45,875 nt of DNA, from the IMG/VR virus record IMGVR_UViG_3300021057_000275, positions 1-45,875 of that record; one strand, written 5' to 3'. How positions within the stretch are numbered: the first letter of the stretch is position 1; each line of letters begins with the position of its first letter. The position numbers and the translations under genes were made by a program. The stretch is from a virus. This document shows, one piece after another, positions 2,362 to 43,039 of the stretch. Below the pieces are notes generated by a model, which was not told the origin of the DNA, did not search any database, and saw nothing but the letters and a program-made list of their open reading frames with translations.

Positions 2362-3366
2362 TTAAGGCTTCCCCTTCAGCTTTTGCAGAAGATCACTCAC
2401 GGGAGTGCGCATCTTGGCCATGGGGTTGGCTCGGTCTACCTCGCGCGTCAGCTTACGGCGTGCGGTGTGGGTGTAGATGGATGTGCTCTTGGGATCGGCA
2501 TGTCCCATGAGCAGTTGAGTGTTGAGGAGCTGCACGTCGTCCTCGACCAGCTCAGTACCGTATAGGTGACGGAATGCATGCGGGTGCAGTTGGCCCTCGG
2601 GAATGCCCAGCGCCTGGCCATAGCGCTTCACCATCTGCAGCACAGCGCGGCGGTTGAGGCGGCGCTTCTCGCCGATGTACTCATGCGCGCCTATCGAGCG
2701 GTTATTCAGGCTGACGAACAGCACGCGATCACCATCCGGAAGCATGCGGTCGATCCCCTGTAGCTCGGGATGCTCGAGGTAGATGCGCAACATCAGGTCG
2801 GCCTCGATCGGTACCGGCAGGATCCGTTCCTTGCTCCCCTTCTCCAGCACACGCAGCATCAGCCGCACCTTGCCGTCGATCTCATCCTGGAGGAGATGGC
2901 TTTCGTTCAGGTGGACCAATCCGGAAGCACGCAGGCCGCAGCCGGTCATTACAGCCAGCATCGCGCCGTCGCGCACGCCGGCGAATGTAGAGAAATCCGG
3001 AGCCCACATCAGTTTCTCGGCATTGGCCAAGGTGATCACGCGCGGTATCTTGCGTCCGCTGGTCGGATACGGTATGCCGGAGGCCGGGTTATCACGCAGG
3101 TGCCGATTATCCTTGCACCAGGCATAAAAGCCGCGCACCGCAGCGATGTGCGTACGCCGACTGACTGGATCCTTGAGGCCTTGCTTGTGTAGCCAAACGC
3201 CGCAAAACACGATCAAGTCATCATGGGTCGCGCTCAACGGATCCCGTTCAGCGAAGTATTGGCCAAGCCGGCGCAGGGCGAGGCGGTAGACCTCGATCGT
3301 CCGGACGGCTTGACCTGTATTCATTAGCTTGTATTCGAGCCATTGCTCGGTCAGGTCGGCAAACAT
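2362..3366 (-). CDS. Tyrosine recombinase, full length (XerC/D or phage integrase type)
   Basis: A 334-residue tyrosine recombinase. Residues 1-95 form the SAM-like core-binding domain typical of Xer and phage integrases. The catalytic domain has Arg146 in TGCGLR, Lys176 in EKGSKER, His263 and Arg266 in HPHAFRH, His289 in LLMGH and nucleophile Tyr298 in SIYTH, so all active-site residues are present. The ATG has AGAGG five bases upstream. It sits beside the serine recombinase and next to the presumed origin. It may be a second integrase or, by analogy with phage-encoded Xer-like enzymes, a multimer-resolution enzyme. That choice cannot be made from the sequence. Confidence 0.92.
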   Translation of the reverse strand: MFADLTEQWLEYKLMNTGQAVRTIEVYRLALRRLGQYFAERDPLSATHDDLIVFCGVWLHKQGLKDPVSRRTHIAAVRGFYAWCKDNRHLRDNPASGIPYPTSGRKIPRVITLANAEKLMWAPDFSTFAGVRDGAMLAVMTGCGLRASGLVHLNESHLLQDEIDGKVRLMLRVLEKGSKERILPVPIEADLMLRIYLEHPELQGIDRMLPDGDRVLFVSLNNRSIGAHEYIGEKRRLNRRAVLQMVKRYGQALGIPEGQLHPHAFRHLYGTELVEDDVQLLNTQLLMGHADPKSTSIYTHTARRKLTREVDRANPMAKMRTPVSDLLQKLKGKP

Positions 3367-3851: not shown

Positions 3852-6623
3852 TTAGCCATGAGAGATGCCTGCATCGACGGTCGGGGTTGCATGGAGGCCG
3901 TACTGCGCCAGCCGGGAGGTAACGAGGGCCGTGAGATGGGCTACACGCTGGTTACGGATCGTGCGCTCAACACCCTCAGGTAGCATCACGTTCGCATGCA
4001 TCAGCTGCTTCTTGAACACTCGGTCGCTCTTCACTGGCAGGCCGTTCCACTTGTCGCGCAATGCCGGCGTATTGGCCAGGTGTTCCATGATGTGGCTGGT
4101 ACGCACCAGGAGTACTTCCTCCGCATCGATCCAGTCCCACTTGTAGGGGTAGCGGAACTCGCCCCGGGCAATCTCGGCCAGCACGGTCTCCATAATCCAC
4201 ACCCATGGCTCGCGATCCGCGCTTGTTTCCCCGATGTGAGCGTTCATCTCCGCCAGCAGGTCATTTCCAAAGCTGCCCTGCCGCGCGTCGATCTCGGCAA
4301 ACTCGCACAGGAAGCGCCAACACGTAAGCAGCGCGGCGTAGTTACCCGCCATGCGCACAGCACCGTCATCCTCGCCACTGGCGCATGAATTGTTAAGGCA
4401 GTGCTCCTTGAGTTGATGGTAGACGGCCTGCACCTGGCTTTTTTTCAGCCCGGTCAGGAACTCCAGCCATTGACGCACTGGGAAACGCGGCAGATCGTCG
4501 GGCATCAGCGGACCCTTCTTGCCTGTCAGCTCGGTCCGGACGATCTTGCCGATCAGGCTGCGCACCGGAACGTCCTCGCCGGCGAGCAGTACCGGAGCCG
4601 AGATCAGGAATTCCGTCATATCGGCGCCGCGACGGTTGACCGTGTATTGGTAATTCTCCTGCAGCAGTCCGACCGCTTTGTCGATGATGTCCTGCCGGCG
4701 TGCCGACAGCTCTTCCCAGCCTACGGGGTGCGAGGTGTGGCTGATCGATGTGAGCAGCCGGAACTCGGTCTGCAACGACTGTCCGGAAAACATAGTGAAG
4801 CCGATCGTGCGCTCGAGGCGCTTGATCAGGGTCGATTTGCCGTGCCCCTTGTCCGCCTGCATCTGCATGTGCGGCCAGAACCCCAGCAACACCTTCAAAT
4901 GCCCGCCAAGGCTCCATACAAGAGGCAAAGTCGCTGCATTACGTTTGAACGTGTTCTGGTATGCCTCGATCACTTTTCGCGCGTCTGAGCGCGATCCTGA
5001 AGGGAAGGTCAGATTGAAGTACGGGCACTGCTGCTCAGGCTGGGTGAAATAGCAGTCCGGCCCCTCGTTGACGATCAATTTCCCGTCGCGGTAGCACAGG
5101 CCGACGAAATTGGCCGCGTTGCGGGCCCCGAGGTGCGCGCCGCGCTCCAGGATGTTCAGCATGCGCAGGAAAGAGGATTGATCCCACACCGGCCCGATCT
5201 TCTTCCAGGTGTCGACGTTGTGCAGCTTCTCATCCTCGATTACCCGGCGCTGTAACTTGGCGCCATGCCGAGGCGTCTGCGCACTGACGGCGAACAGCAC
5301 CCTGGGCTGAGTGTCCGGGTCTCCGCTCATGGTCGACGTGGCGCCGGCGATCGTTACGCGCGACAGCGAGGCAACGCGGAATCCGGCCAGGTCCTTGTAT
5401 TCCAGCTTCTCGTTGCCGTTTTCGTCGGTCTTGATTTCGGCGATGTACTGCGTGAAATCCTCGCTGACGCGATAGCGCCAGTAGCGAACGTCATCACGGA
5501 ATGGCAGATAGACGCGCTGGCGCCCAAAGTTCTCCTCCACCTTGCCAGGCTGGCCCTGTATCAGCCACGGGTCGAGACGATACAGCGCGCGGCGCATCTC
5601 GTCCCGTCCCATAGTTTTCAGCATGTCGTTGAGGTCGTTGATCGGCTCTTCGTTCTCGTCCACCCACTTGGATTGATCGATCATCATTGCCGAGATATCC
5701 AGCGCGGTCAGGATCTCGTGCAATTCCCATGCAGCCTCCGGTCCTGGGCGACGGCGCGCTTGCGGATGCGGCCGGCCATCATCGGTCAGCTCAGGCAGCG
5801 GCGCATCGTTGTCGAAGCACAGCACCACATGCTTGCCGCGGAGGAAGGTCCAGTCGATCGCACTTACGTTGAGGCCGCGTACTGCAAAGGCGGCCGTGTG
5901 GGGAATGTCCGCCGTCTCGACGGACAAGGCATTGATCGGCGACTCCACGACATAGACCTTCTCGGCACGCTGCAGTCGCTTGATGTCGCTGGTCCAGCCA
6001 TAACCGAACTTCTCCCCCTGGCATTGGGTTTTCGTTCCGCCGTTGATGGCCGGGTCAAGGTAGCGCAGATCCACCGCCACCACGTGGCCAGGGTTAAGCG
6101 TACGGGCAATGAAGGCCACGGCTGGCCCACCGTGGCCATGCTCGCCCGCCGGCGTCTTGTCGCTCTCCCAGTCGTTGAACCCCACGGACCGGGCCTTGAT
6201 GGCGCGATGCACCACCTCCTCCGAAATGCCGCGGCCGGTCAAGTACTCAACACTGCGTTCCGGTTCTACCAGGCAGCGTTCCGCGATGTATTCCACCAGC
6301 GATCTTTCCCGCTGCTCCGCAGGCTGGTCAGGCTTATCGAGCGGGATGCCTAGGAAGTTATGCAGCTCCTTGATCGCCTCACCTACATCTATGTTCTTCA
6401 CGTAGCACACCAGGTCTACGCAGCTGCCGGCGGCATCCTTGCCGCCTGAATAGTCCCGCCACTTGTCCGGGCCGGCCTTGGTGCCGATCTGCAGCGAGGG
6501 GGATTTGTCATCGTGGTGCGGGCTCTTGTAGTTGCCCTTGCTACCTGCCGGACGCTCCAGCCCCAGCCAATCGGCCAGGGCATGGAGGTCAACGCGAGCT
6601 TTGAGATCGTCTATGGTTGCCAT
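3852..6623 (-). CDS. Phage primase-helicase
   Basis: A 923-residue replication protein. The N-terminal 90 residues resemble the DnaG/CHC2 zinc-binding domain (YKSPHHDDKSPSLQI, residues 32-46), but the usual first Cys is Ser, so zinc binding may be lost. A TOPRIM primase core follows with Glu227 in VVESPINALS and Asp271/Asp273 in CFDNDAP. The C-terminal half has a P-loop at about 590-599 (ADKGHGKSTL), indicating a helicase ATPase. It would lay primers and unwind DNA at the phage fork. It lies immediately downstream, in transcription direction, of small early genes and next to the repeat-rich presumed origin. Domain calls are strong; the exact helicase superfamily is not settled. Confidence 0.88.
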   Translation of the reverse strand: MATIDDLKARVDLHALADWLGLERPAGSKGNYKSPHHDDKSPSLQIGTKAGPDKWRDYSGGKDAAGSCVDLVCYVKNIDVGEAIKELHNFLGIPLDKPDQPAEQRERSLVEYIAERCLVEPERSVEYLTGRGISEEVVHRAIKARSVGFNDWESDKTPAGEHGHGGPAVAFIARTLNPGHVVAVDLRYLDPAINGGTKTQCQGEKFGYGWTSDIKRLQRAEKVYVVESPINALSVETADIPHTAAFAVRGLNVSAIDWTFLRGKHVVLCFDNDAPLPELTDDGRPHPQARRRPGPEAAWELHEILTALDISAMMIDQSKWVDENEEPINDLNDMLKTMGRDEMRRALYRLDPWLIQGQPGKVEENFGRQRVYLPFRDDVRYWRYRVSEDFTQYIAEIKTDENGNEKLEYKDLAGFRVASLSRVTIAGATSTMSGDPDTQPRVLFAVSAQTPRHGAKLQRRVIEDEKLHNVDTWKKIGPVWDQSSFLRMLNILERGAHLGARNAANFVGLCYRDGKLIVNEGPDCYFTQPEQQCPYFNLTFPSGSRSDARKVIEAYQNTFKRNAATLPLVWSLGGHLKVLLGFWPHMQMQADKGHGKSTLIKRLERTIGFTMFSGQSLQTEFRLLTSISHTSHPVGWEELSARRQDIIDKAVGLLQENYQYTVNRRGADMTEFLISAPVLLAGEDVPVRSLIGKIVRTELTGKKGPLMPDDLPRFPVRQWLEFLTGLKKSQVQAVYHQLKEHCLNNSCASGEDDGAVRMAGNYAALLTCWRFLCEFAEIDARQGSFGNDLLAEMNAHIGETSADREPWVWIMETVLAEIARGEFRYPYKWDWIDAEEVLLVRTSHIMEHLANTPALRDKWNGLPVKSDRVFKKQLMHANVMLPEGVERTIRNQRVAHLTALVTSRLAQYGLHATPTVDAGISHG

Positions 6624-36431: not shown

Positions 36432-38999
36432 TTAACGATCGACGCGGCCAGTACCGCTGTACACGACGATCGAGGTCAGAGCGCCCTTTAGCAGCTGGGG
36501 CGTGTGTACGACGATGAACTGATCACCGTAGGCTTCCTTCTTGCCAGTGAAACGGCCGTTGGAATCCTTCTGGTTCTCCAACTCGCCCAGGGTCCACGGC
36601 TTGACCATGCGGAAGCGCACGGTGCCGCGTTCGCCGATGACCGTCCGGACATCGCCATGAGGCAAGCCTGGCGCGAAGCTACGGAAACCGGGAACGTCCT
36701 TGATACGGCCAAGGTTGCCGTCAGCGGACAAGTCGGTGCCCGGGCGCTTGTGGTTCGCGCCGAACTGCTTGGCCTGCTCGATCTGCGTCATCAAGGTGCC
36801 GCTCATCAAAGCCATGTTGGCCATGTATGCGCGGTCCTCGATGATGGTCTTGCGCAGGCCGAAGCGGTACAGGAATTGGTCGTACTTCACATCGGCTTCC
36901 AGGCTGCCTAGATCGCTATCCCACTTGTAAACGTTGGTGGTGTATGTGTAGCTTGCGACCACTGCATGCGTGTTGCTCGGAGGAGTCGGCACACCCAACT
37001 CGTTGACGAAGGTAATTTCGCCCAGGTTGTAGTCGATGGTGTAGTACAGCCCTGCGGCTTGCGTGCCGGTGCCGTCGTATTCAGAACGGGCAACAGAGTT
37101 GGTTGTTACCGTGACCGCGTACAGCGTGCTACCCACTTGAACGCCCTGCAGGTCATAGATTTTCTTCGGACGAACAATCGGGAATTGATTTGTCACGAAG
37201 ATGGTCTTAGTCCCATCTGCAGTCGCTACCGCTTCGTTGCTGACCGCTACGGTAGAGTACTGGTCGGCCGCATTCAGGTGTTCGCCGAAGATCAGGCCTT
37301 CGCTGTCCTCGCCCACGATTCGCGAGGCATTGCGTGCATTTTCGGCCACGATATCGAAGTTAATCTGGCCGTTTCCGACCAGGTAGCGCAGTTCATCGGA
37401 CACTTCGAACGCCAGCTTTTGCGGGATGGGACGGGCTTCTTCCAGCGCTTGCTTCACTGCCGCACGTGCGATGCCCTGGCCTTCATACTTGCGGGCATTG
37501 GCTACGCCGGCACCGGTCGTATCGCGGTAGCTGTAAGGCAACTGGATAGTGCTGCCGAACTGCGCAGTGCCGACATCGCACAATCCCAGGCCAACCAGTT
37601 GATACAACGCTTCACGCACTACGGTACGCTCAAAGATTGCAGGCACGGCGACGTCGGATACGACCGAATCCCCTGCTGCCAGGCGGCGATGGGCATCGCA
37701 TTCACGATGCAGGCGCTCCGCATGCAAAGAGTCGTAGAGGGCCAGGGCCTGATCGACCAGTGCGCGATTACCCTCGATCGGGACACCGCCCGACAAGGTG
37801 TAGCGCCTATGGCTTGGCATGTTACCGAACACGCGCTTGTCGACTTCTTCCTGCAGTGCCTTGATCTGGTTGGAGCTGTCTACGCTGATGTGGACATTGC
37901 CTTGCGGCCAGTTCCAACCCAGGTCCGTCAGCTTTTTCGCCGCGGCCATCTTGTTGCCGAAGGCGATCTGGTTGTCGGCCAGCTTCTTGACTTGATCGCC
38001 AGTCATTTCAGCCGTGATCAGGTCGACGACCGACTCCGCCAGTTCTTTCTTGGTGGTTTCATCGAAACCGGAAACTGCGTTGATCGTATCGGTCAGCATC
38101 TTCACGTTGCCGTCCCGCTTCTCGGCCAGTTGCTTGGCTTCGTTAGCGACGCGCTCGGTTTCTTGCTGCATCAACTTCTTGACTTCCTCGGCGGACAGCC
38201 CGCCCTTGAAGTCAGGTGCCTGGATCGACAGAGTGACGATACGGTCGCCGATCTGCTCGGCCAGCTTCTTGCCCGACTCCTCGAAGGAAGTCATCAGTGC
38301 AGCTGCCTGGCCTTCGTCGGTCAGCGGCTCGACGGCCTTTTCAAAGGCCTCGGTTAGGGATTTGACTACGGGAGCGGCCAGGTTCAAGCCGGCCAGGATA
38401 GCCATCAATTTGGCGACGAGTGCTTTATGCATGTTAGTAATCTCCGCGAGTAAAGTGGATTGCAATTCGGGATGGAGCAACGTGGGGACACCGGAATCGT
38501 CAATTTCGGAAAGCTGCACAGGATCCAGTCGCTTCACGACCGGCCGCACGCACAGCCCTGCACCGAGCATCACGGGGCCATAGGCCTTGCCGGTCTCGTT
38601 GTCCTTGAAGTTCTCCTGATATTCGATCGAGAGGTAGCGGTAACCCTTGTTCTTGATGGCGTCGACGCCTAGAGGCGTCCATTCCACCAGCGCACGCAGC
38701 CGGTCGCCTTCGACGGCCAGCTTGAGCACCTTGGCTGCTGCGCCATCGCTGGGGCGATGCGATACGTCGAAAAAGATTTCTTGCCCGTAAGCGTTGTTTT
38801 CGAAGTTCGCGACCATGGCCAACAGCATTTGTCGGCTGATCTCGAATTTGCCGTAACGGGGATCGCTAAACGTACCAGTGCGGGTAACCGTCACCCAGCT
38901 GGTCTTTTTACCTTCCTCCAGGTTCACATGGAGTCCGGACAGGAATCGCACTGTCCCGGGATCGGCTTCGGATAGCTGTATGGTTTTGGCTGGCTGCAT
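36432..38999 (-). CDS. Capsid maturation protease fused to scaffold and major capsid protein
   Basis: An 855-residue polyprotein; ATG 38999 has GGAGG at five bases. Residues about 40-165 match the Mu gpI-like capsid protease (SDPRYGKFEISRQMLLAM, FFDVSHRPSDGAA). A helical, Lys/Glu-rich region (about 190-360) looks like scaffold. From about 370 to the end is a major capsid protein (QVDKRVFGNMPSHRRYTL; ARKYEGQGIARAAVKQAL). An in-frame ATG at 38432, with GGAG nine bases before, could make scaffold-capsid alone. Fusion of protease to capsid is unusual; the protease must cut itself free. Confidence 0.83.
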   Translation of the reverse strand: MQPAKTIQLSEADPGTVRFLSGLHVNLEEGKKTSWVTVTRTGTFSDPRYGKFEISRQMLLAMVANFENNAYGQEIFFDVSHRPSDGAAAKVLKLAVEGDRLRALVEWTPLGVDAIKNKGYRYLSIEYQENFKDNETGKAYGPVMLGAGLCVRPVVKRLDPVQLSEIDDSGVPTLLHPELQSTLLAEITNMHKALVAKLMAILAGLNLAAPVVKSLTEAFEKAVEPLTDEGQAAALMTSFEESGKKLAEQIGDRIVTLSIQAPDFKGGLSAEEVKKLMQQETERVANEAKQLAEKRDGNVKMLTDTINAVSGFDETTKKELAESVVDLITAEMTGDQVKKLADNQIAFGNKMAAAKKLTDLGWNWPQGNVHISVDSSNQIKALQEEVDKRVFGNMPSHRRYTLSGGVPIEGNRALVDQALALYDSLHAERLHRECDAHRRLAAGDSVVSDVAVPAIFERTVVREALYQLVGLGLCDVGTAQFGSTIQLPYSYRDTTGAGVANARKYEGQGIARAAVKQALEEARPIPQKLAFEVSDELRYLVGNGQINFDIVAENARNASRIVGEDSEGLIFGEHLNAADQYSTVAVSNEAVATADGTKTIFVTNQFPIVRPKKIYDLQGVQVGSTLYAVTVTTNSVARSEYDGTGTQAAGLYYTIDYNLGEITFVNELGVPTPPSNTHAVVASYTYTTNVYKWDSDLGSLEADVKYDQFLYRFGLRKTIIEDRAYMANMALMSGTLMTQIEQAKQFGANHKRPGTDLSADGNLGRIKDVPGFRSFAPGLPHGDVRTVIGERGTVRFRMVKPWTLGELENQKDSNGRFTGKKEAYGDQFIVVHTPQLLKGALTSIVVYSGTGRVDR
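38432..38445 (-). promoter_or_regulatory. Internal ribosome site and start for scaffold-capsid product
   Basis: On the leftward strand GGAG precedes an in-frame ATG (38432) by nine bases at the boundary between protease and scaffold. Start there would give a 666-residue protein without the protease, echoing the Mu I/Z arrangement. Confidence 0.45.
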
Positions 39000-39100
39000 C
39001 AAATCCTCCAAGGGCTCCAGCGCGTGGGCGGCACATGGAAGGCGAGCGAGCCAGTGAGAGCCGCCCACGACGGAGCTGTGGCGAATGATGCGGTTTAGAT

Positions 39101-39225: not shown

Positions 39226-39567
39226 TTAGTGCAGGATTTGCACTGGGATACGGTTGCCGCTTGCGTCCTGCAATGTGGGAAGTTCTTCGTCGGGAGGGAC
39301 GTGCAACAATGCGGTTTGCTCCACAGTTAGCACCCAGCATTGTCCGAGAACGGCAAACATTTCGGCAGCATTGGCCAGGGGCTGCTCGATCTTGTAGGTC
39401 GTCGGCCAGGGATGGCTGACAATTTCGCCCGCCTTGACGGCGTCCAGCAGCAGCTCGAGCACAAGCTGGGCATCCCTGCCGCGCACCTGGCGCGCATCAG
39501 GATCCCATTCGAACTCGATATCCGGCTTGTGCCAGACCGAGGATTTCAAAGCGAGCTTACGGTACAT
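39226..39567 (-). CDS. Small virion-region protein, unknown
   Basis: A 113-residue protein overlapping the MuF gene end by 11 bases. Contains DARQVRGRDAQLVLELLLDAV, PWPTTYKIEQPLANAAEMFAV, mixed alpha/beta. No family recognised. A gap with the repeat follows. Confidence 0.6.
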   Translation of the reverse strand: MYRKLALKSSVWHKPDIEFEWDPDARQVRGRDAQLVLELLLDAVKAGEIVSHPWPTTYKIEQPLANAAEMFAVLGQCWVLTVEQTALLHVPPDEELPTLQDASGNRIPVQILH

Positions 39568-41425
39568 AGTGGAACAGCAGCCCGATCACCAAATTCAGCA
39601 TTTCTCGATCCTTTCCGACCAGCTCTTCAAGTCGCCAGGCCTGGCCCCCCAGCACGTCTTCAAAAGCCATTGTCATGACTTCGAGCGCGCCGTGCCTACC
39701 CAGGTAGTAGTGCCCGGAATATTCCTTACCTTGGTACGGGTTGCGGTACTTATCTTCGCGGGTCACCTCGCTTTTAGCATAGCCGTGATGCGGATACAAG
39801 TCTCTCATGCGCCGCAACGGGTCACCTTTCGTCCGCCGTCCATGCAGCTCCTGGAAGAAATCATCCAGCGAGGGCAAGGCGTGCTGCAGCCTATGGGTAT
39901 ATTCGTGCACCATGGTCGCAAAACTTCCGCCGCGGACAAAACCATCGCCGCCACGGGCAACCCCTGAAAACCCCAGCAAACCACGATAGTGCTGGCCGGC
40001 CACATCGGCAGGCAGTGTCACCTGTCCCCCGCGCGATGCCGAGTATTTGGCCCATAGAGGGCCAAGTCGATCGGCAGTCTTGGTCCAGTCGTCGGGAAAC
40101 AAGCGCGAAGCTGCCTTTACCAACTCCGCCCCCTTGCCACCGTTTTGCACCTTAGCCGGTGTATTGATGGGCCTCGCATCACTTAGGCGCGTGTGCAGGC
40201 TTTCGAGCAACTTGCCGCCATCCACCGATCCATCACCGCGGCGAGAGGATTCGATCAGCTCCGTGACGATCGGCTCGCCTCGAGAAATCATATCGTCCAC
40301 GTCCAGCCTTTTGGACGGTCGCGGCCTTGGAGGTTCTGGCGGTTGCTGCCCAATCCGCTTGCGCACTGAGCGCAATGGCGCTTTGATCATGCCCTGCGTC
40401 AATCCTCCGGACTTGAACACATCGTACTTGTGCTTTCCCAATACGCCGCGCTGTTGCGCTGGTGTAAGACGGTCAAGGGCTTGCATCGGCGTTTCCTTGC
40501 CTGCGCGATCCGCATCCGTCACTTCGTTCCTGAACACGATTTCCACATAACTCAATGTGTTCGGGTGCGCTGGCCAAGGGCACTTTTCACGGCTGGGATA
40601 CACCCCACGCCCGATTCCGTGAAGGTTGGCCGCGGCATGCAAATCACAGATGTCATACTTGGGATGCGCCGGCGAAAGCAGGAAGCGCCACCCAGCAAAG
40701 TCCGGATGATCCTCACCGCCGCGCATATATGCCTCCCCATGCGCCCGATTGAGCTCGGTTCGCATCAGTCGCATGGCATGGTCGAGAGGCGAACCATTGC
40801 CGGTCATGAGCTGGTTAATGATGGTCTGCGAGATCCGTGAGGCGTTAGCTGCGTCGATTTTTGCTTGCAAGTCCAACGGTACCGGCTTGCCCTGCAGCAG
40901 CAGTTCCCTAGCCGCCTGCCCTGCGCCGTATCCCTGGATCACCGCCTGCTCGATAGCATTGATGACGATGTCACGGGCGTGTCGATCGAGCCGCCAAATG
41001 CGGTCGGATAGCTGCAGGCCATCCCCGCCGATGAATGTGACGATGAATCGCAATGCCTCATCAGCTATACGTTGCGCCGCCAGGGTATTCAACAGCGGTA
41101 CCACTTCACCAGTTGCAGCAGTATACGGGCTGAGGCCCAGCGTTGCCGCCTGTTGCATACCTTGCTGCAACAGCAGGTCCCGGGCATCGCCCAGTTGTTT
41201 CAGTCGCGCATTGACCTGGCTCAGGACATCTTGTAGTTGTGTCAGTTCTATATTGTCATCGGCGCCCGCGGCGAGGCGAAGACTTTGTGTAATTTCATCA
41301 GCCGCTTGCTGGTAGATCGTCTGCAAACGCTGCAGCGCTTCGGCGTCGAGCTGATCCATCTGACGCTGAGCGACGGTGGTGGATCGGCGGATGCGGGCCT
41401 GCTGCGCCAGTCGCGACTCAGTCAT
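39557..41425 (-). CDS. MuF-like minor head protein with C-terminal metallopeptidase-like domain
   Basis: A 622-residue protein. Coiled-coil N terminus, then a MuF-like head morphogenesis domain at about 215-300 (RTELNRAHGEAYMRGGE; SPAHPKYDICDLHAAANLHG). A Pro-rich linker (360-372) leads to a C-terminal domain with HEYTH at 507-511, the HExxH zinc motif, and Glu582 or Glu589 about 75 residues on, as in gluzincin peptidases. MuF proteins with C-terminal effector domains are known as phage polymorphic toxins delivered or carried by the virion. The ATG overlaps the portal stop by eight bases. Confidence 0.83.
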   Translation of the reverse strand: MTESRLAQQARIRRSTTVAQRQMDQLDAEALQRLQTIYQQAADEITQSLRLAAGADDNIELTQLQDVLSQVNARLKQLGDARDLLLQQGMQQAATLGLSPYTAATGEVVPLLNTLAAQRIADEALRFIVTFIGGDGLQLSDRIWRLDRHARDIVINAIEQAVIQGYGAGQAARELLLQGKPVPLDLQAKIDAANASRISQTIINQLMTGNGSPLDHAMRLMRTELNRAHGEAYMRGGEDHPDFAGWRFLLSPAHPKYDICDLHAAANLHGIGRGVYPSREKCPWPAHPNTLSYVEIVFRNEVTDADRAGKETPMQALDRLTPAQQRGVLGKHKYDVFKSGGLTQGMIKAPLRSVRKRIGQQPPEPPRPRPSKRLDVDDMISRGEPIVTELIESSRRGDGSVDGGKLLESLHTRLSDARPINTPAKVQNGGKGAELVKAASRLFPDDWTKTADRLGPLWAKYSASRGGQVTLPADVAGQHYRGLLGFSGVARGGDGFVRGGSFATMVHEYTHRLQHALPSLDDFFQELHGRRTKGDPLRRMRDLYPHHGYAKSEVTREDKYRNPYQGKEYSGHYYLGRHGALEVMTMAFEDVLGGQAWRLEELVGKDREMLNLVIGLLFHYVP

Positions 41426-42776
41426 TGGTGATGCTCGTGCCGCTTTCCCCCTTGCGCTGGTTGCCCGGGGTGATGCTCACTTGCTGGGGATTCGCACCGC
41501 CTTTCGCATCCGGATAGGGGTCGTAGTTTTCTGCGTCGCTTTGCCGGCGCTCTTCCACCGTGGCAGCGTCGTAGCCCAGCTCCTCCCATACCATGCTTTG
41601 GGGCAGGCCGAGCGCCTTGAGCTTTAGCGCCCTGTCCGTCGTCTGTGTGGGGGTCTCCGTCCGTCGCTCGGCGTAAGTGATGGCAAATTCGTCCGAGTCA
41701 GGGTTGATCCCCTTGAGCAGCAGGTGGAAGCGGAATCCAGCCTCATAAACGAAGGCCAGTGTGTCCTGCAGGTCGTCAATTTCGTCGAAATAGGTCCGCT
41801 TGAGGTCCTCCAGGATGTCGCGCGCCATCCCATCCGTGTATCCCATCATTCCCTTTGGTAATGGAGAGCCCGCAAAGAATGTATCGAGCAGGTGCACGAT
41901 GTCTGCGACATGGTCGAGATTGCTGTCACCCTGAACCGCCGTAACGCCACCCTCGCGATTCATGTAATAGTCCGTGGTCATGCCTTCGGCTTGGTCTTTC
42001 TCAACCGTCTGTCGATAGGTGTTGAGATCGGCCTCGCTAGCACCCTTGAGCACATGCGCCATTCGCAACGGGGCGCGCATGCGACGGCGGATGACCAAGT
42101 CTTCTTCTGTCATGCGCAGCTTGCGCCAGGTGGTGCGCGTCGCGTCGAGAAACGGACGGCCCAGACTGCCGACATCGTCGAAGTTGTCCGGGTCGAATCG
42201 TGCATGGAATAGTTTCCATAGCGGGAAGGCCGCCAGCTCGGTTCCGGTCAGGATGTCGTACTGGATATACGCGCGGGTTAAGTCCTTGAAGCGGCCGGAT
42301 TCGTTGACGTTGGGCATGATGGTTTCCGAAGGCATGCGCACCCCAGCCACCACATTGTTCTGCTGATCCAGCACCCACTGCATCGGCAGATTACCCTCCA
42401 TGACGAAGCCACGTGCATCCGACTTCAATTTTTCCCTACGGTTGAACTGCATCCGTGTCTGAAACTCCTTCCAGTGTTTCGATAGCACTGGGCTGGGCGT
42501 GGTCTGCTGCATGATAAGACCGCCCTTTATGATGTCTCTCGCCACGCGACCATGGATCAACTTTGCCCGACCATCGAGACGATCCATTTCGCGAATATCC
42601 AGAATCGCCTGGCGCAGGTCCGGATCCACCCACATGATTCGGTACAGGTAGTCGGTGCGCGACTCTGGTGTCGGACGATAGCCAGCCTCTGATGTATTGG
42701 CACCGACGCTTGCCGTCTCCTGCGGCAGTGACGGTGCCCCTTTGAGGTAGTGGAAAGCTTTCTGCAGCAGGTTCAT
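41418..42776 (-). CDS. Portal protein
   Basis: A 452-residue protein from MNLLQKAFHYLKG; ATG has AGGAGA at six bases and ATGA overlap with the small gene before. Contains a wing region, helical stem (DILEDLKRTYFDEIDDLQDTL) and clip-like parts with DIIKGGLIMQQT; order after TerL and before MuF is the standard portal place. The longer frame to 42824 is not preferred. Confidence 0.82.
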   Translation of the reverse strand: MNLLQKAFHYLKGAPSLPQETASVGANTSEAGYRPTPESRTDYLYRIMWVDPDLRQAILDIREMDRLDGRAKLIHGRVARDIIKGGLIMQQTTPSPVLSKHWKEFQTRMQFNRREKLKSDARGFVMEGNLPMQWVLDQQNNVVAGVRMPSETIMPNVNESGRFKDLTRAYIQYDILTGTELAAFPLWKLFHARFDPDNFDDVGSLGRPFLDATRTTWRKLRMTEEDLVIRRRMRAPLRMAHVLKGASEADLNTYRQTVEKDQAEGMTTDYYMNREGGVTAVQGDSNLDHVADIVHLLDTFFAGSPLPKGMMGYTDGMARDILEDLKRTYFDEIDDLQDTLAFVYEAGFRFHLLLKGINPDSDEFAITYAERRTETPTQTTDRALKLKALGLPQSMVWEELGYDAATVEERRQSDAENYDPYPDAKGGANPQQVSITPGNQRKGESGTSITND

Positions 42777-43039
42777 GCCACTTCTCCTGTGTCGAATACT
42801 TCGATACGTATGACGTTGCGCCAACCGTCGATCAAGCCAGCATCTACCAGCGCCTTAATTTCCGGTACCAGCTCGGGCATGTGCTCATGCACCAGCGCCC
42901 GACGACGCGCAACGGCTTCTTGTTCCTGTTCATTAAGCGGCCGCAAGGCAGTTCGCCGCTCGGGAACTGCAAGCGATTCCGCGTCGCCGTCCGTGCCGGC
43001 GTACGGACTCTTACCCCGCGCTCGTGCGTAATCGTTCAT
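42773..43039 (-). CDS. Small protein between terminase and portal, unknown
   Basis: An 88-residue helical protein (LRPLNEQEQEAVARRRALVHEHMPEL) coupled by ATGA on both sides. Such small genes between TerL and portal are common; it may be a head-assembly helper. No motif found. Confidence 0.65.
   Translation of the reverse strand: MNDYARARGKSPYAGTDGDAESLAVPERRTALRPLNEQEQEAVARRRALVHEHMPELVPEIKALVDAGLIDGWRNVIRIEVFDTGEVA

What the first reader, a model, noticed from the sequence alone, without database searches (positions are those of the whole stretch)
39557..41425. MuF head protein carrying an HExxH metallopeptidase-like domain
The C-terminal 250 residues have HEYTH and a later Glu, beyond a Pro-rich linker. 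MuF-linked toxins are known, and a peptidase here would be a virion-borne effector that could enter the host at injection to disable a target.
Basis: partly seen in the sequence, partly recalled or inferred. Interest (0 to 1): 0.7.

Follow-up and report, generated by a model that had tools for sequence, protein, structure and literature searches.

The report
Phage head-borne protease toxin with antidote
A temperate phage's head protein carries on its tail end an intact zinc-protease domain, followed by a small partner gene that always travels with it, so the pair looks like a virion-borne protease toxin and its antidote: a new family within the known "MuF toxin" kind.

Summary
The 622-aa product has a MuF-like head-morphogenesis N-terminus, a Pro-rich linker and a C-terminal domain with HEYTH (507-511) and Glu582. 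H507, E508, H511 and E582 are invariant in 82 of 82 full-length homologous domains. The AlphaFold2 model (pLDDT 95.1) resembles M34-type zinc peptidases: PPEP-1/2/3 and the lethal-factor catalytic domain, Z 8.0-8.7.

A 113-aa acidic ORF (39226-39567) overlaps the muf stop codon. Among 77 intact loci with the same MuF, 12 of 12 with the peptidase have this ORF and 0 of 65 without it do. The two change together in 7 of 7 independent gains or losses on the MuF tree. The same MuF also carries other C-terminal domains, most with their own small ORF. The peptidase and ORF also occur on an unrelated Pfam Phage_Mu_F protein.

These are hallmarks of MuF polymorphic toxin-immunity systems, in which metallopeptidase domains are already reported. 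I conclude it is a new, previously unnamed peptidase family plus its probable immunity protein: a new member of a known kind. Activity, target, inhibition and delivery are inferred, not shown.

The parts
39557..41425 (-). muf-like gene, 622 aa: head-morphogenesis N-terminus + Pro-rich linker + metallopeptidase domain
   Evidence: ORF; PHROG 1657 E 9.7e-32; C-term family
40388..41425 (-). MuF-like head-morphogenesis region, residues 1-346
   Evidence: PHROG 1657/115/4728; conserved in 80 viral loci; next to portal
40316..40387 (-). linker, residues 347-370, Pro-rich (QQPPEPPRPRP)
   Evidence: sequence; a Pro-Pro pair is present in 29 of 70 homologues, so not conserved
39560..40315 (-). C-terminal gluzincin-type metallopeptidase domain, residues 371-622
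   Evidence: alignments A1/A3; AF2 pLDDT 95.1, pTM 0.92; PDB fold match Z 8.0-8.7
39893..39907 (-). HEYTH, residues 507-511 (predicted zinc ligands H507, H511; general base E508)
   Evidence: invariant 82/82; lies in a model helix
39680..39682 (-). E582, predicted third zinc ligand, at the start of a following conserved helix
   Evidence: invariant 82/82; helix 212-222 of the model
39226..39567 (-). 113-aa acidic ORF overlapping the muf stop by 11 nt: probable cognate immunity protein / inhibitor
   Evidence: linked to the peptidase domain 12/12 vs 0/65, 7/7 independent events; AF2 pLDDT 90.7
41418..42824 (-). portal protein, directly upstream
   Evidence: PF07230 Portal_T4 E 7.3e-6
36432..39068 (-). 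separate Mu I-like head-maturation protease (N-terminal part of an 878-aa ORF)
   Evidence: PF10123 E 7.5e-10; phrog_328 E 2.4e-7
2362..3366 (-). integrase: the phage is probably temperate
   Evidence: phrog_1 E 2.1e-34

Best explanation
It is a MuF-type polymorphic toxin of a temperate phage. The N-terminal head protein anchors the molecule in the capsid at the portal. The C-terminal domain is an active-site-complete zinc gluzincin with a fold like M34 peptidases (PPEP, lethal factor), carried as a replaceable effector cassette. The overlapping 113-aa ORF makes its cognate immunity protein, translated together with it, which most likely blocks the active site in the producing cell or lysogen. 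On infection the few copies in the virion would enter with the DNA and cleave one or more cytoplasmic proteins of a cell that lacks the antidote. Shown here: the conserved catalytic residues, the predicted fold, the repeated exchange of the C-terminal domain, and the strict linkage of the small ORF to this domain. Inferred: zinc binding, proteolysis, inhibition by the small protein, presence in virions, ejection, and the target.
For: Catalytic residues invariant 82/82. Confident model whose best PDB matches are all zinc peptidases with HExxH...E: PPEP-1/Zmp1, PPEP-2, PPEP-3 and anthrax LF catalytic domain, Z 8.0-8.7 over 135-146 residues. Cassette behaviour: the same MuF N-terminus (44-64% identity) carries no C-terminal domain, this one, or at least nine others, including two further HExxH peptidase types, a JAMM-like HNHP domain, a phosphoribosyltransferase-like domain, DUF6883 and PBECR3. 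The peptidase label needs 9 changes on the MuF tree, at least 7 forced by well-supported branches. The peptidase also sits on a Phage_Mu_F (PF04233, E 9e-17) N-terminus not linked to the window's by BLAST at 1e-5. Partner: 12/12 vs 0/65 intact loci, Fisher p 3e-14; 7/7 independent tree events, p 0.016; recoverable small-ORF families sort with C-terminal class; a small ORF starts within 15 nt of the muf stop in 31/40 loci with a long C-terminal extension vs 8/35 short ones, p 3e-6. The small ORF diverges faster than the peptidase in 40/40 comparisons (mean 27% vs 46% identity), as IapK does relative to Aph1 in Apk2 loci (PMC12226406). Precedents: Apk2+IapK (PMC12226406) and Bxa with two immunity proteins (PMC11699363); Jamet 2017 reports metallopeptidase domains in 20% of MuF toxins and a <150-aa ORF after 89% of them (PMC5576092). 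Integrase in the window fits the temperate association.
Against: No biochemical evidence of any kind. No virion proteomics for this family was found; database 'structural protein' labels for relatives were not traced to mass spectrometry. The window's N-terminus is not itself above threshold for PF04233, and profile comparison with a true Phage_Mu_F set is inconclusive (21.7% probability). The small ORF has no known family and no PDB fold match, so 'immunity' rests on linkage and analogy. pippi8-1, which carries a homologue, was isolated as a lytic phage, so not every carrier is temperate. PDB matches have Z only just above background levels quoted by the tool and 9-14% identity.
Confidence: 0.72

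Rival explanations
1. The domain is a processing protease: it cuts its own MuF linker or other head proteins during assembly or after ejection, and the small ORF is a regulator or chaperone of that maturation.
For: Polyvalent-protein MPTases are proposed to self-process, as in P1 DdrB (PMC5512222). The fold resembles Pro-Pro endopeptidases and the linker has Pro-Pro pairs.
Against: A separate Mu I-like head protease lies in the same cluster. Many close relatives of this MuF lack the domain altogether or carry non-peptidase domains, so it is not needed for the head. Pro-Pro in the linker is present in only 29 of 70 homologues. Maturation would not predict different, matched small ORFs for each C-terminal class.
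Confidence: 0.12
2. The delivered peptidase is a mild effector, not a killer: it removes a host defence protein or a repressor and so favours establishment of the infection or tunes lysis versus lysogeny. The small ORF stops it acting in the lysogen.
For: Jamet et al. propose exactly this for low-toxicity MuF peptidases (PMC5576092). The 80alpha gp44 ejection protein, a minor capsid protein assigned to the MuF family, promotes lytic growth and protects DNA ends. Only a few copies per virion are expected.
Against: A dedicated, tightly linked partner is usually needed for toxic effectors; other characterised MuF C-termini (Apk2, Bxa) are bactericidal or growth-inhibiting. Nothing here separates the two readings.
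Confidence: 0.3
3. The domain is a structural relic of a peptidase and the linkage of the small ORF reflects folding or assembly of that domain only.
For: No activity has been measured; fold similarity shows no function (one search gives fold only).
Against: H507, E508, H511 and E582 are all invariant in 82 distinct domains down to about 19% identity, which is not expected of a relic.
Confidence: 0.06

Closest known systems
MuF polymorphic toxins (Jamet et al. 2017, PMC5576092), class with metallopeptidase C-terminus
   Same: Head protein next to the portal, replaceable C-terminal enzymatic domain, small ORF directly downstream, temperate phages; about 20% of the listed MuF toxins have a metallopeptidase domain.
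   Different: This peptidase family has no Pfam or NCBIfam model and only function-less PHROGs plus one 'minor head protein'; the window's N-terminus is not above threshold for PF04233.
Bxa (MuF-ADP-ribosyltransferase, PMC11699363) and Apk2 (MuF-(p)ppApp synthetase, PMC12226406)
   Same: Same layout; adjacent small ORFs proven to be immunity proteins, some by blocking the active site.
   Different: Different chemistry: those modify proteins or make alarmones; here a predicted peptidase, untested.
Zincin-like MPTase domains of polyvalent proteins (Iyer et al. 2017, PMC5512222)
   Same: HExxH helix and Glu on a following helix; phage or element proteins delivered with DNA; one homologue sits in a 1959-aa multidomain protein (L039).
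   Different: Those are mostly hubs in large multidomain proteins with proposed self-processing; here one domain at the end of a head protein with a linked partner. Which of their 12 clades, if any, this is was not tested (their alignments were not available).
M34 peptidases: PPEP-1/Zmp1, PPEP-2, PPEP-3, lethal-factor catalytic domain
   Same: Best structural matches, Z 8.0-8.7; gluzincin layout HExxH...E.
   Different: 9-14% identity; 70 residues between the end of HExxH and the Glu, with a conserved RT...Y...E...D...YxGxxY segment there; different delivery.

Membership tests
MuF polymorphic toxin | N-terminal MuF / phage head domain encoded next to the portal | tested here: met
   PHROG head morphogenesis/minor head E 1e-31 and 9e-13; portal adjacent. 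Pfam PF04233 itself not reached by the window, but reached by relatives carrying the same C-terminus (L012, L111).
MuF polymorphic toxin | Variable, exchangeable C-terminal domains on a conserved N-terminus | tested here: met
   At least ten C-terminal classes or none on the same MuF; at least 7 supported changes of this class
MuF polymorphic toxin | C-terminal domain shared with other polymorphic toxin families | tested here: inconclusive
   Found on at least two MuF types, in cyanophage proteins, and apparently stand-alone with its small ORF in L121 and L124; no RHS/CdiA/T6SS fusion seen in the collections searched
MuF polymorphic toxin | Cognate immunity gene directly downstream | tested here: inconclusive
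   Strict linkage of a small overlapping ORF; protection itself not testable here
MuF polymorphic toxin | Toxic activity of the C-terminal domain | not testable with these tools
   Needs expression experiments
Gluzincin (clan MA) metallopeptidase | HExxH on a helix and a conserved Glu on a following helix | tested here: met
   Invariant residues; model helices 132-146 and 212-222, in domain numbering
Gluzincin (clan MA) metallopeptidase | Overall fold | tested here: met
   Best PDB matches are gluzincins at Z 8.0-8.7; the next group lies at about 2.7-4.7
Peptidase family M34 (PPEP / lethal factor) | Sequence-level membership | tested here: inconclusive
   No M34 chain among profile hits in PDB sequences; similarity seen only by fold
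Peptidase family M34 (PPEP / lethal factor) | Catalytic Tyr shortly before the third ligand Glu | not testable with these tools
   Invariant or nearly invariant Tyr564 and Tyr569 lie 18 and 13 residues before E582; no coordinates available to check placement

The most novel reading that the evidence does not exclude
A previously unnamed family of M34-like protease toxins carried in phage heads, whose dedicated immunity proteins inhibit by threading a conserved C-terminal tail (hydrophobic residue then Tyr/Phe/His/Asn and the free carboxylate) into the zinc site. In 61 distinct small ORFs, 39 end in Tyr or Phe and 51 have Val, Ile or Leu just before, although the proteins otherwise barely align across strep, cyanobacterial, Flavobacterium and betaproteobacterial phages; the partner ORFs of the other C-terminal classes do not end this way.
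Probability: 0.25. Interest if true: 0.65.

Novelty: new member of a known kind. Interest (0 to 1): 0.48.

Why it matters
The MuF toxins for which I found a tested activity (Apk2, Bxa and the EFV toxin) act by nucleotide synthesis or ADP-ribosylation; I found no peptidase MuF toxin that has been characterised. This locus gives a defined catalytic domain with exact boundaries, its probable antidote and clear mutants, so whether phages inject proteases at infection becomes testable. It would also name two protein families that Pfam and NCBIfam do not recognise, present in phages of Proteobacteria, Streptococcus, Flavobacterium and cyanobacteria.

Tried and rejected
Head-maturation protease: disfavoured because a separate Mu I-like protease is in the cluster and the domain is dispensable. 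Self-cleavage at Pro-Pro in the linker, suggested by the PPEP-like fold: Pro-Pro present in only 29/70 homologues. Pfam, NCBIfam and PADLOC scans of the domain: nothing significant. PDB by sequence: nothing significant. Fold search for the small ORF: best Z 2.7, no usable match, which does not show a new fold. The first control set for linkage (L013-L040) was too distant in its MuF part, so I replaced it with 44-64% identical MuF loci. Virion proteomics for relatives: the pippi8-1 paper has none; the PaV-LD 'virion structural protein' label was not traceable to data. No tool predicts complexes, so docking of the small ORF to the peptidase was not tried. Model coordinates are not returned, so zinc-site geometry and the catalytic Tyr were not measured.

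Full report
WHAT IS THERE. The finding's ORF is on the minus strand (39557-41425, 622 aa, ATG). Residues 18-297 match head-morphogenesis families (phrog_1657 E 9.7e-32; phrog_115 'minor head protein' E 8.6e-13), and the portal gene lies directly upstream (PF07230), the usual place of muf genes. A Pro-rich linker follows at about 361-369, then a C-terminal domain from about residue 371. HEYTH is at 507-511 and the later Glu is E582. By composition 0.03 HExxH motifs are expected in the protein.

CONSERVATION. Homologues of the C-terminal domain were collected from phage records, viral contigs and genome contigs. In 82 distinct full-length domains H507, E508, H511, D558, G566, E582 and D606 are invariant, and R531, T532, Y549, E553, Y564 and Y569 are at 96-99%; members go down to about 19% identity. 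Hits without HExxH are fragments cut before the motif. The viral scan used patterns that do not include HExxH, so the result is not circular. No Pfam or NCBIfam model matches significantly; only PHROGs without function, and one called 'minor head protein', do.

FOLD. An AlphaFold2 model of residues 371-622 on a 61-sequence alignment has mean pLDDT 95.1 and pTM 0.92. HEYTH lies in one helix and E582 begins a following conserved helix. The best PDB matches by VIA-align 2 are all zinc peptidases of the M34 type: PPEP-1/Zmp1, PPEP-2, PPEP-3 and the anthrax lethal-factor catalytic domain, Z 8.0-8.7, rmsd 3.2-3.7 over 135-146 residues, 9-14% identity; other peptidases follow at Z 4.7 and below. Foldseek alone gave no significant match and sequence profiles find no M34 chain. 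I therefore call it M34-like in fold and do not claim membership. Coordinates are not returned, so zinc geometry was not measured.

THE PARTNER GENE. The muf stop codon overlaps by 11 nt the start of a 113-aa acidic ORF (39226-39567:-). Homologues follow the peptidase domain almost everywhere. To test linkage properly I collected 80 viral loci with the same MuF N-terminus (44-64% identity), plus the more distant yong1 phage locus. Among intact loci all 12 with the peptidase have the ORF and none of 65 without it does (Fisher p 3e-14; loci are not independent). On a tree of the MuF part the peptidase label changes at least 7 times on well-supported branches, and the small ORF changes with it in 7 of 7 independent pairs (sign test p 0.016). 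The small ORF is less conserved than the peptidase in 40 of 40 comparisons (mean 27% against 46%). Its model is confident (pLDDT 90.7) but has no useful PDB match and no known family.

A POLYMORPHIC LOCUS. The same MuF N-terminus ends short, or carries one of at least ten C-terminal types. Assigned by motif reading: this peptidase; a second HExxH family (HEAGH, L150/L158/L169); HEYGH types (L167/L202 and L181/L187/L200); a JAMM-like HNHP domain (L170 and five others); a GNAT-like domain (L148/L162/L198). Supported by Pfam: a weak phosphoribosyltransferase match (L131/L132/L149, E 0.0023), DUF6883 (E 1e-27) and PBECR3 (E 3e-6, below the curated cut-off). Small downstream ORFs sort with C-terminal class where more than one can be compared; DUF6883 is paired with DUF4926. 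An ATG ORF of 50-150 aa starts within 15 nt of the muf stop in 31 of 40 loci with a long extension and 8 of 35 short ones (p 3e-6), close to the 89% versus 25% of Jamet et al. (PMC5576092). The peptidase and its ORF also sit on a Phage_Mu_F N-terminus (PF04233 E 9e-17) that BLAST does not link to the window's. They appear without either MuF type in L121 and L124. In L128 only the last 52 residues of the peptidase protein remain, next to an intact small ORF, as an orphan antidote would look.

MECHANISM. From this anatomy and established MuF biology I conclude that the protein is anchored in the head by its MuF part, that the C-terminal domain is a zinc peptidase effector, and that the 113-aa protein is its immunity protein, probably acting at the active site as IapK does for Apk2 (PMC12226406) and as modelled for Bxa-type partners (PMC11699363). 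Delivery with DNA is inferred: MuF proteins are minor capsid components, and 80alpha gp44, assigned to the MuF family in PMC12323379, is an ejection protein (PMC7290940). Targets are unknown. An observation that may bear on inhibition: in 61 distinct small ORFs, 39 end in Tyr or Phe and 51 have Val, Ile or Leu just before, even where the rest hardly aligns; ORFs of other C-terminal classes do not. A tail inserted into the zinc site would explain this, but that is a hypothesis.

WHAT IS KNOWN AND NEW. MuF toxins with metallopeptidase domains are already reported as a class (PMC5576092), zincin-like domains in phage-delivered proteins are known (PMC5512222), and small immunity ORFs next to MuF toxins are proven for two other chemistries. 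New here are this peptidase family, its fold assignment, its partner gene and the evidence that the two move together. I therefore rate it a new member of a known kind. Whether it kills, tunes lysogeny or counters defence cannot be told from sequence.

Noticed in passing
L170, L173, L185, L186, L195, L196 (C-terminal 230-245 aa of the MuF-like protein): The same MuF carries a JAMM-like domain (VVHNHPSSSSLS.PDL-type motif) with its own 54-61 aa partner ORF starting IIDPP. A virion-borne isopeptidase-like effector could be aimed at ubiquitin-like defence conjugation; motif reading only.
   Followed up: partly
L150, L151, L158, L159, L169 and L167, L202, L181, L187, L200: Further HExxH families (HEAGH...E.FAEV and HEYGH...E.FAN) on the same MuF, each with a distinct small downstream ORF; the HEAGH partner is Cys-rich.
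   Followed up: partly
L131, L132, L149 and L148, L162, L198: Phosphoribosyltransferase-like (weak PF00156, E 0.0023) and GNAT-like (motif reading) C-terminal domains on the same MuF.
   Followed up: partly
L043, L066, L068, L070, L072-L075: Cyanophages of the PaV-LD type carry two or three tandem paralogues of this peptidase with a different N-terminus (TSYNCGxxCIN motif), followed by a small ORF ending in IVY or IIY.
   Followed up: partly
L039:3-5879: A 1959-aa protein with a helicase-like N-terminal part holds a distant copy of the peptidase (HENTH), like a polyvalent protein.
   Followed up: no
L128 (Gallionella MAG, about 5990-6500): Only the last 52 residues of the peptidase protein remain, next to an intact small ORF: a possible orphan immunity gene.
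   Followed up: partly
window 36432-39068 (-): An 878-aa ORF has a Mu I-like protease at its N-terminus; its position and length suggest a protease-scaffold-major capsid fusion, repeated in relatives (ORFs of about 850-880 aa).
   Followed up: no
L174, L176, L177, L180: Short MuF genes without an extension are followed by a 59-64 aa Cys-rich ORF resembling Mu Com, so not every overlapping small ORF after muf is an immunity candidate.
   Followed up: no
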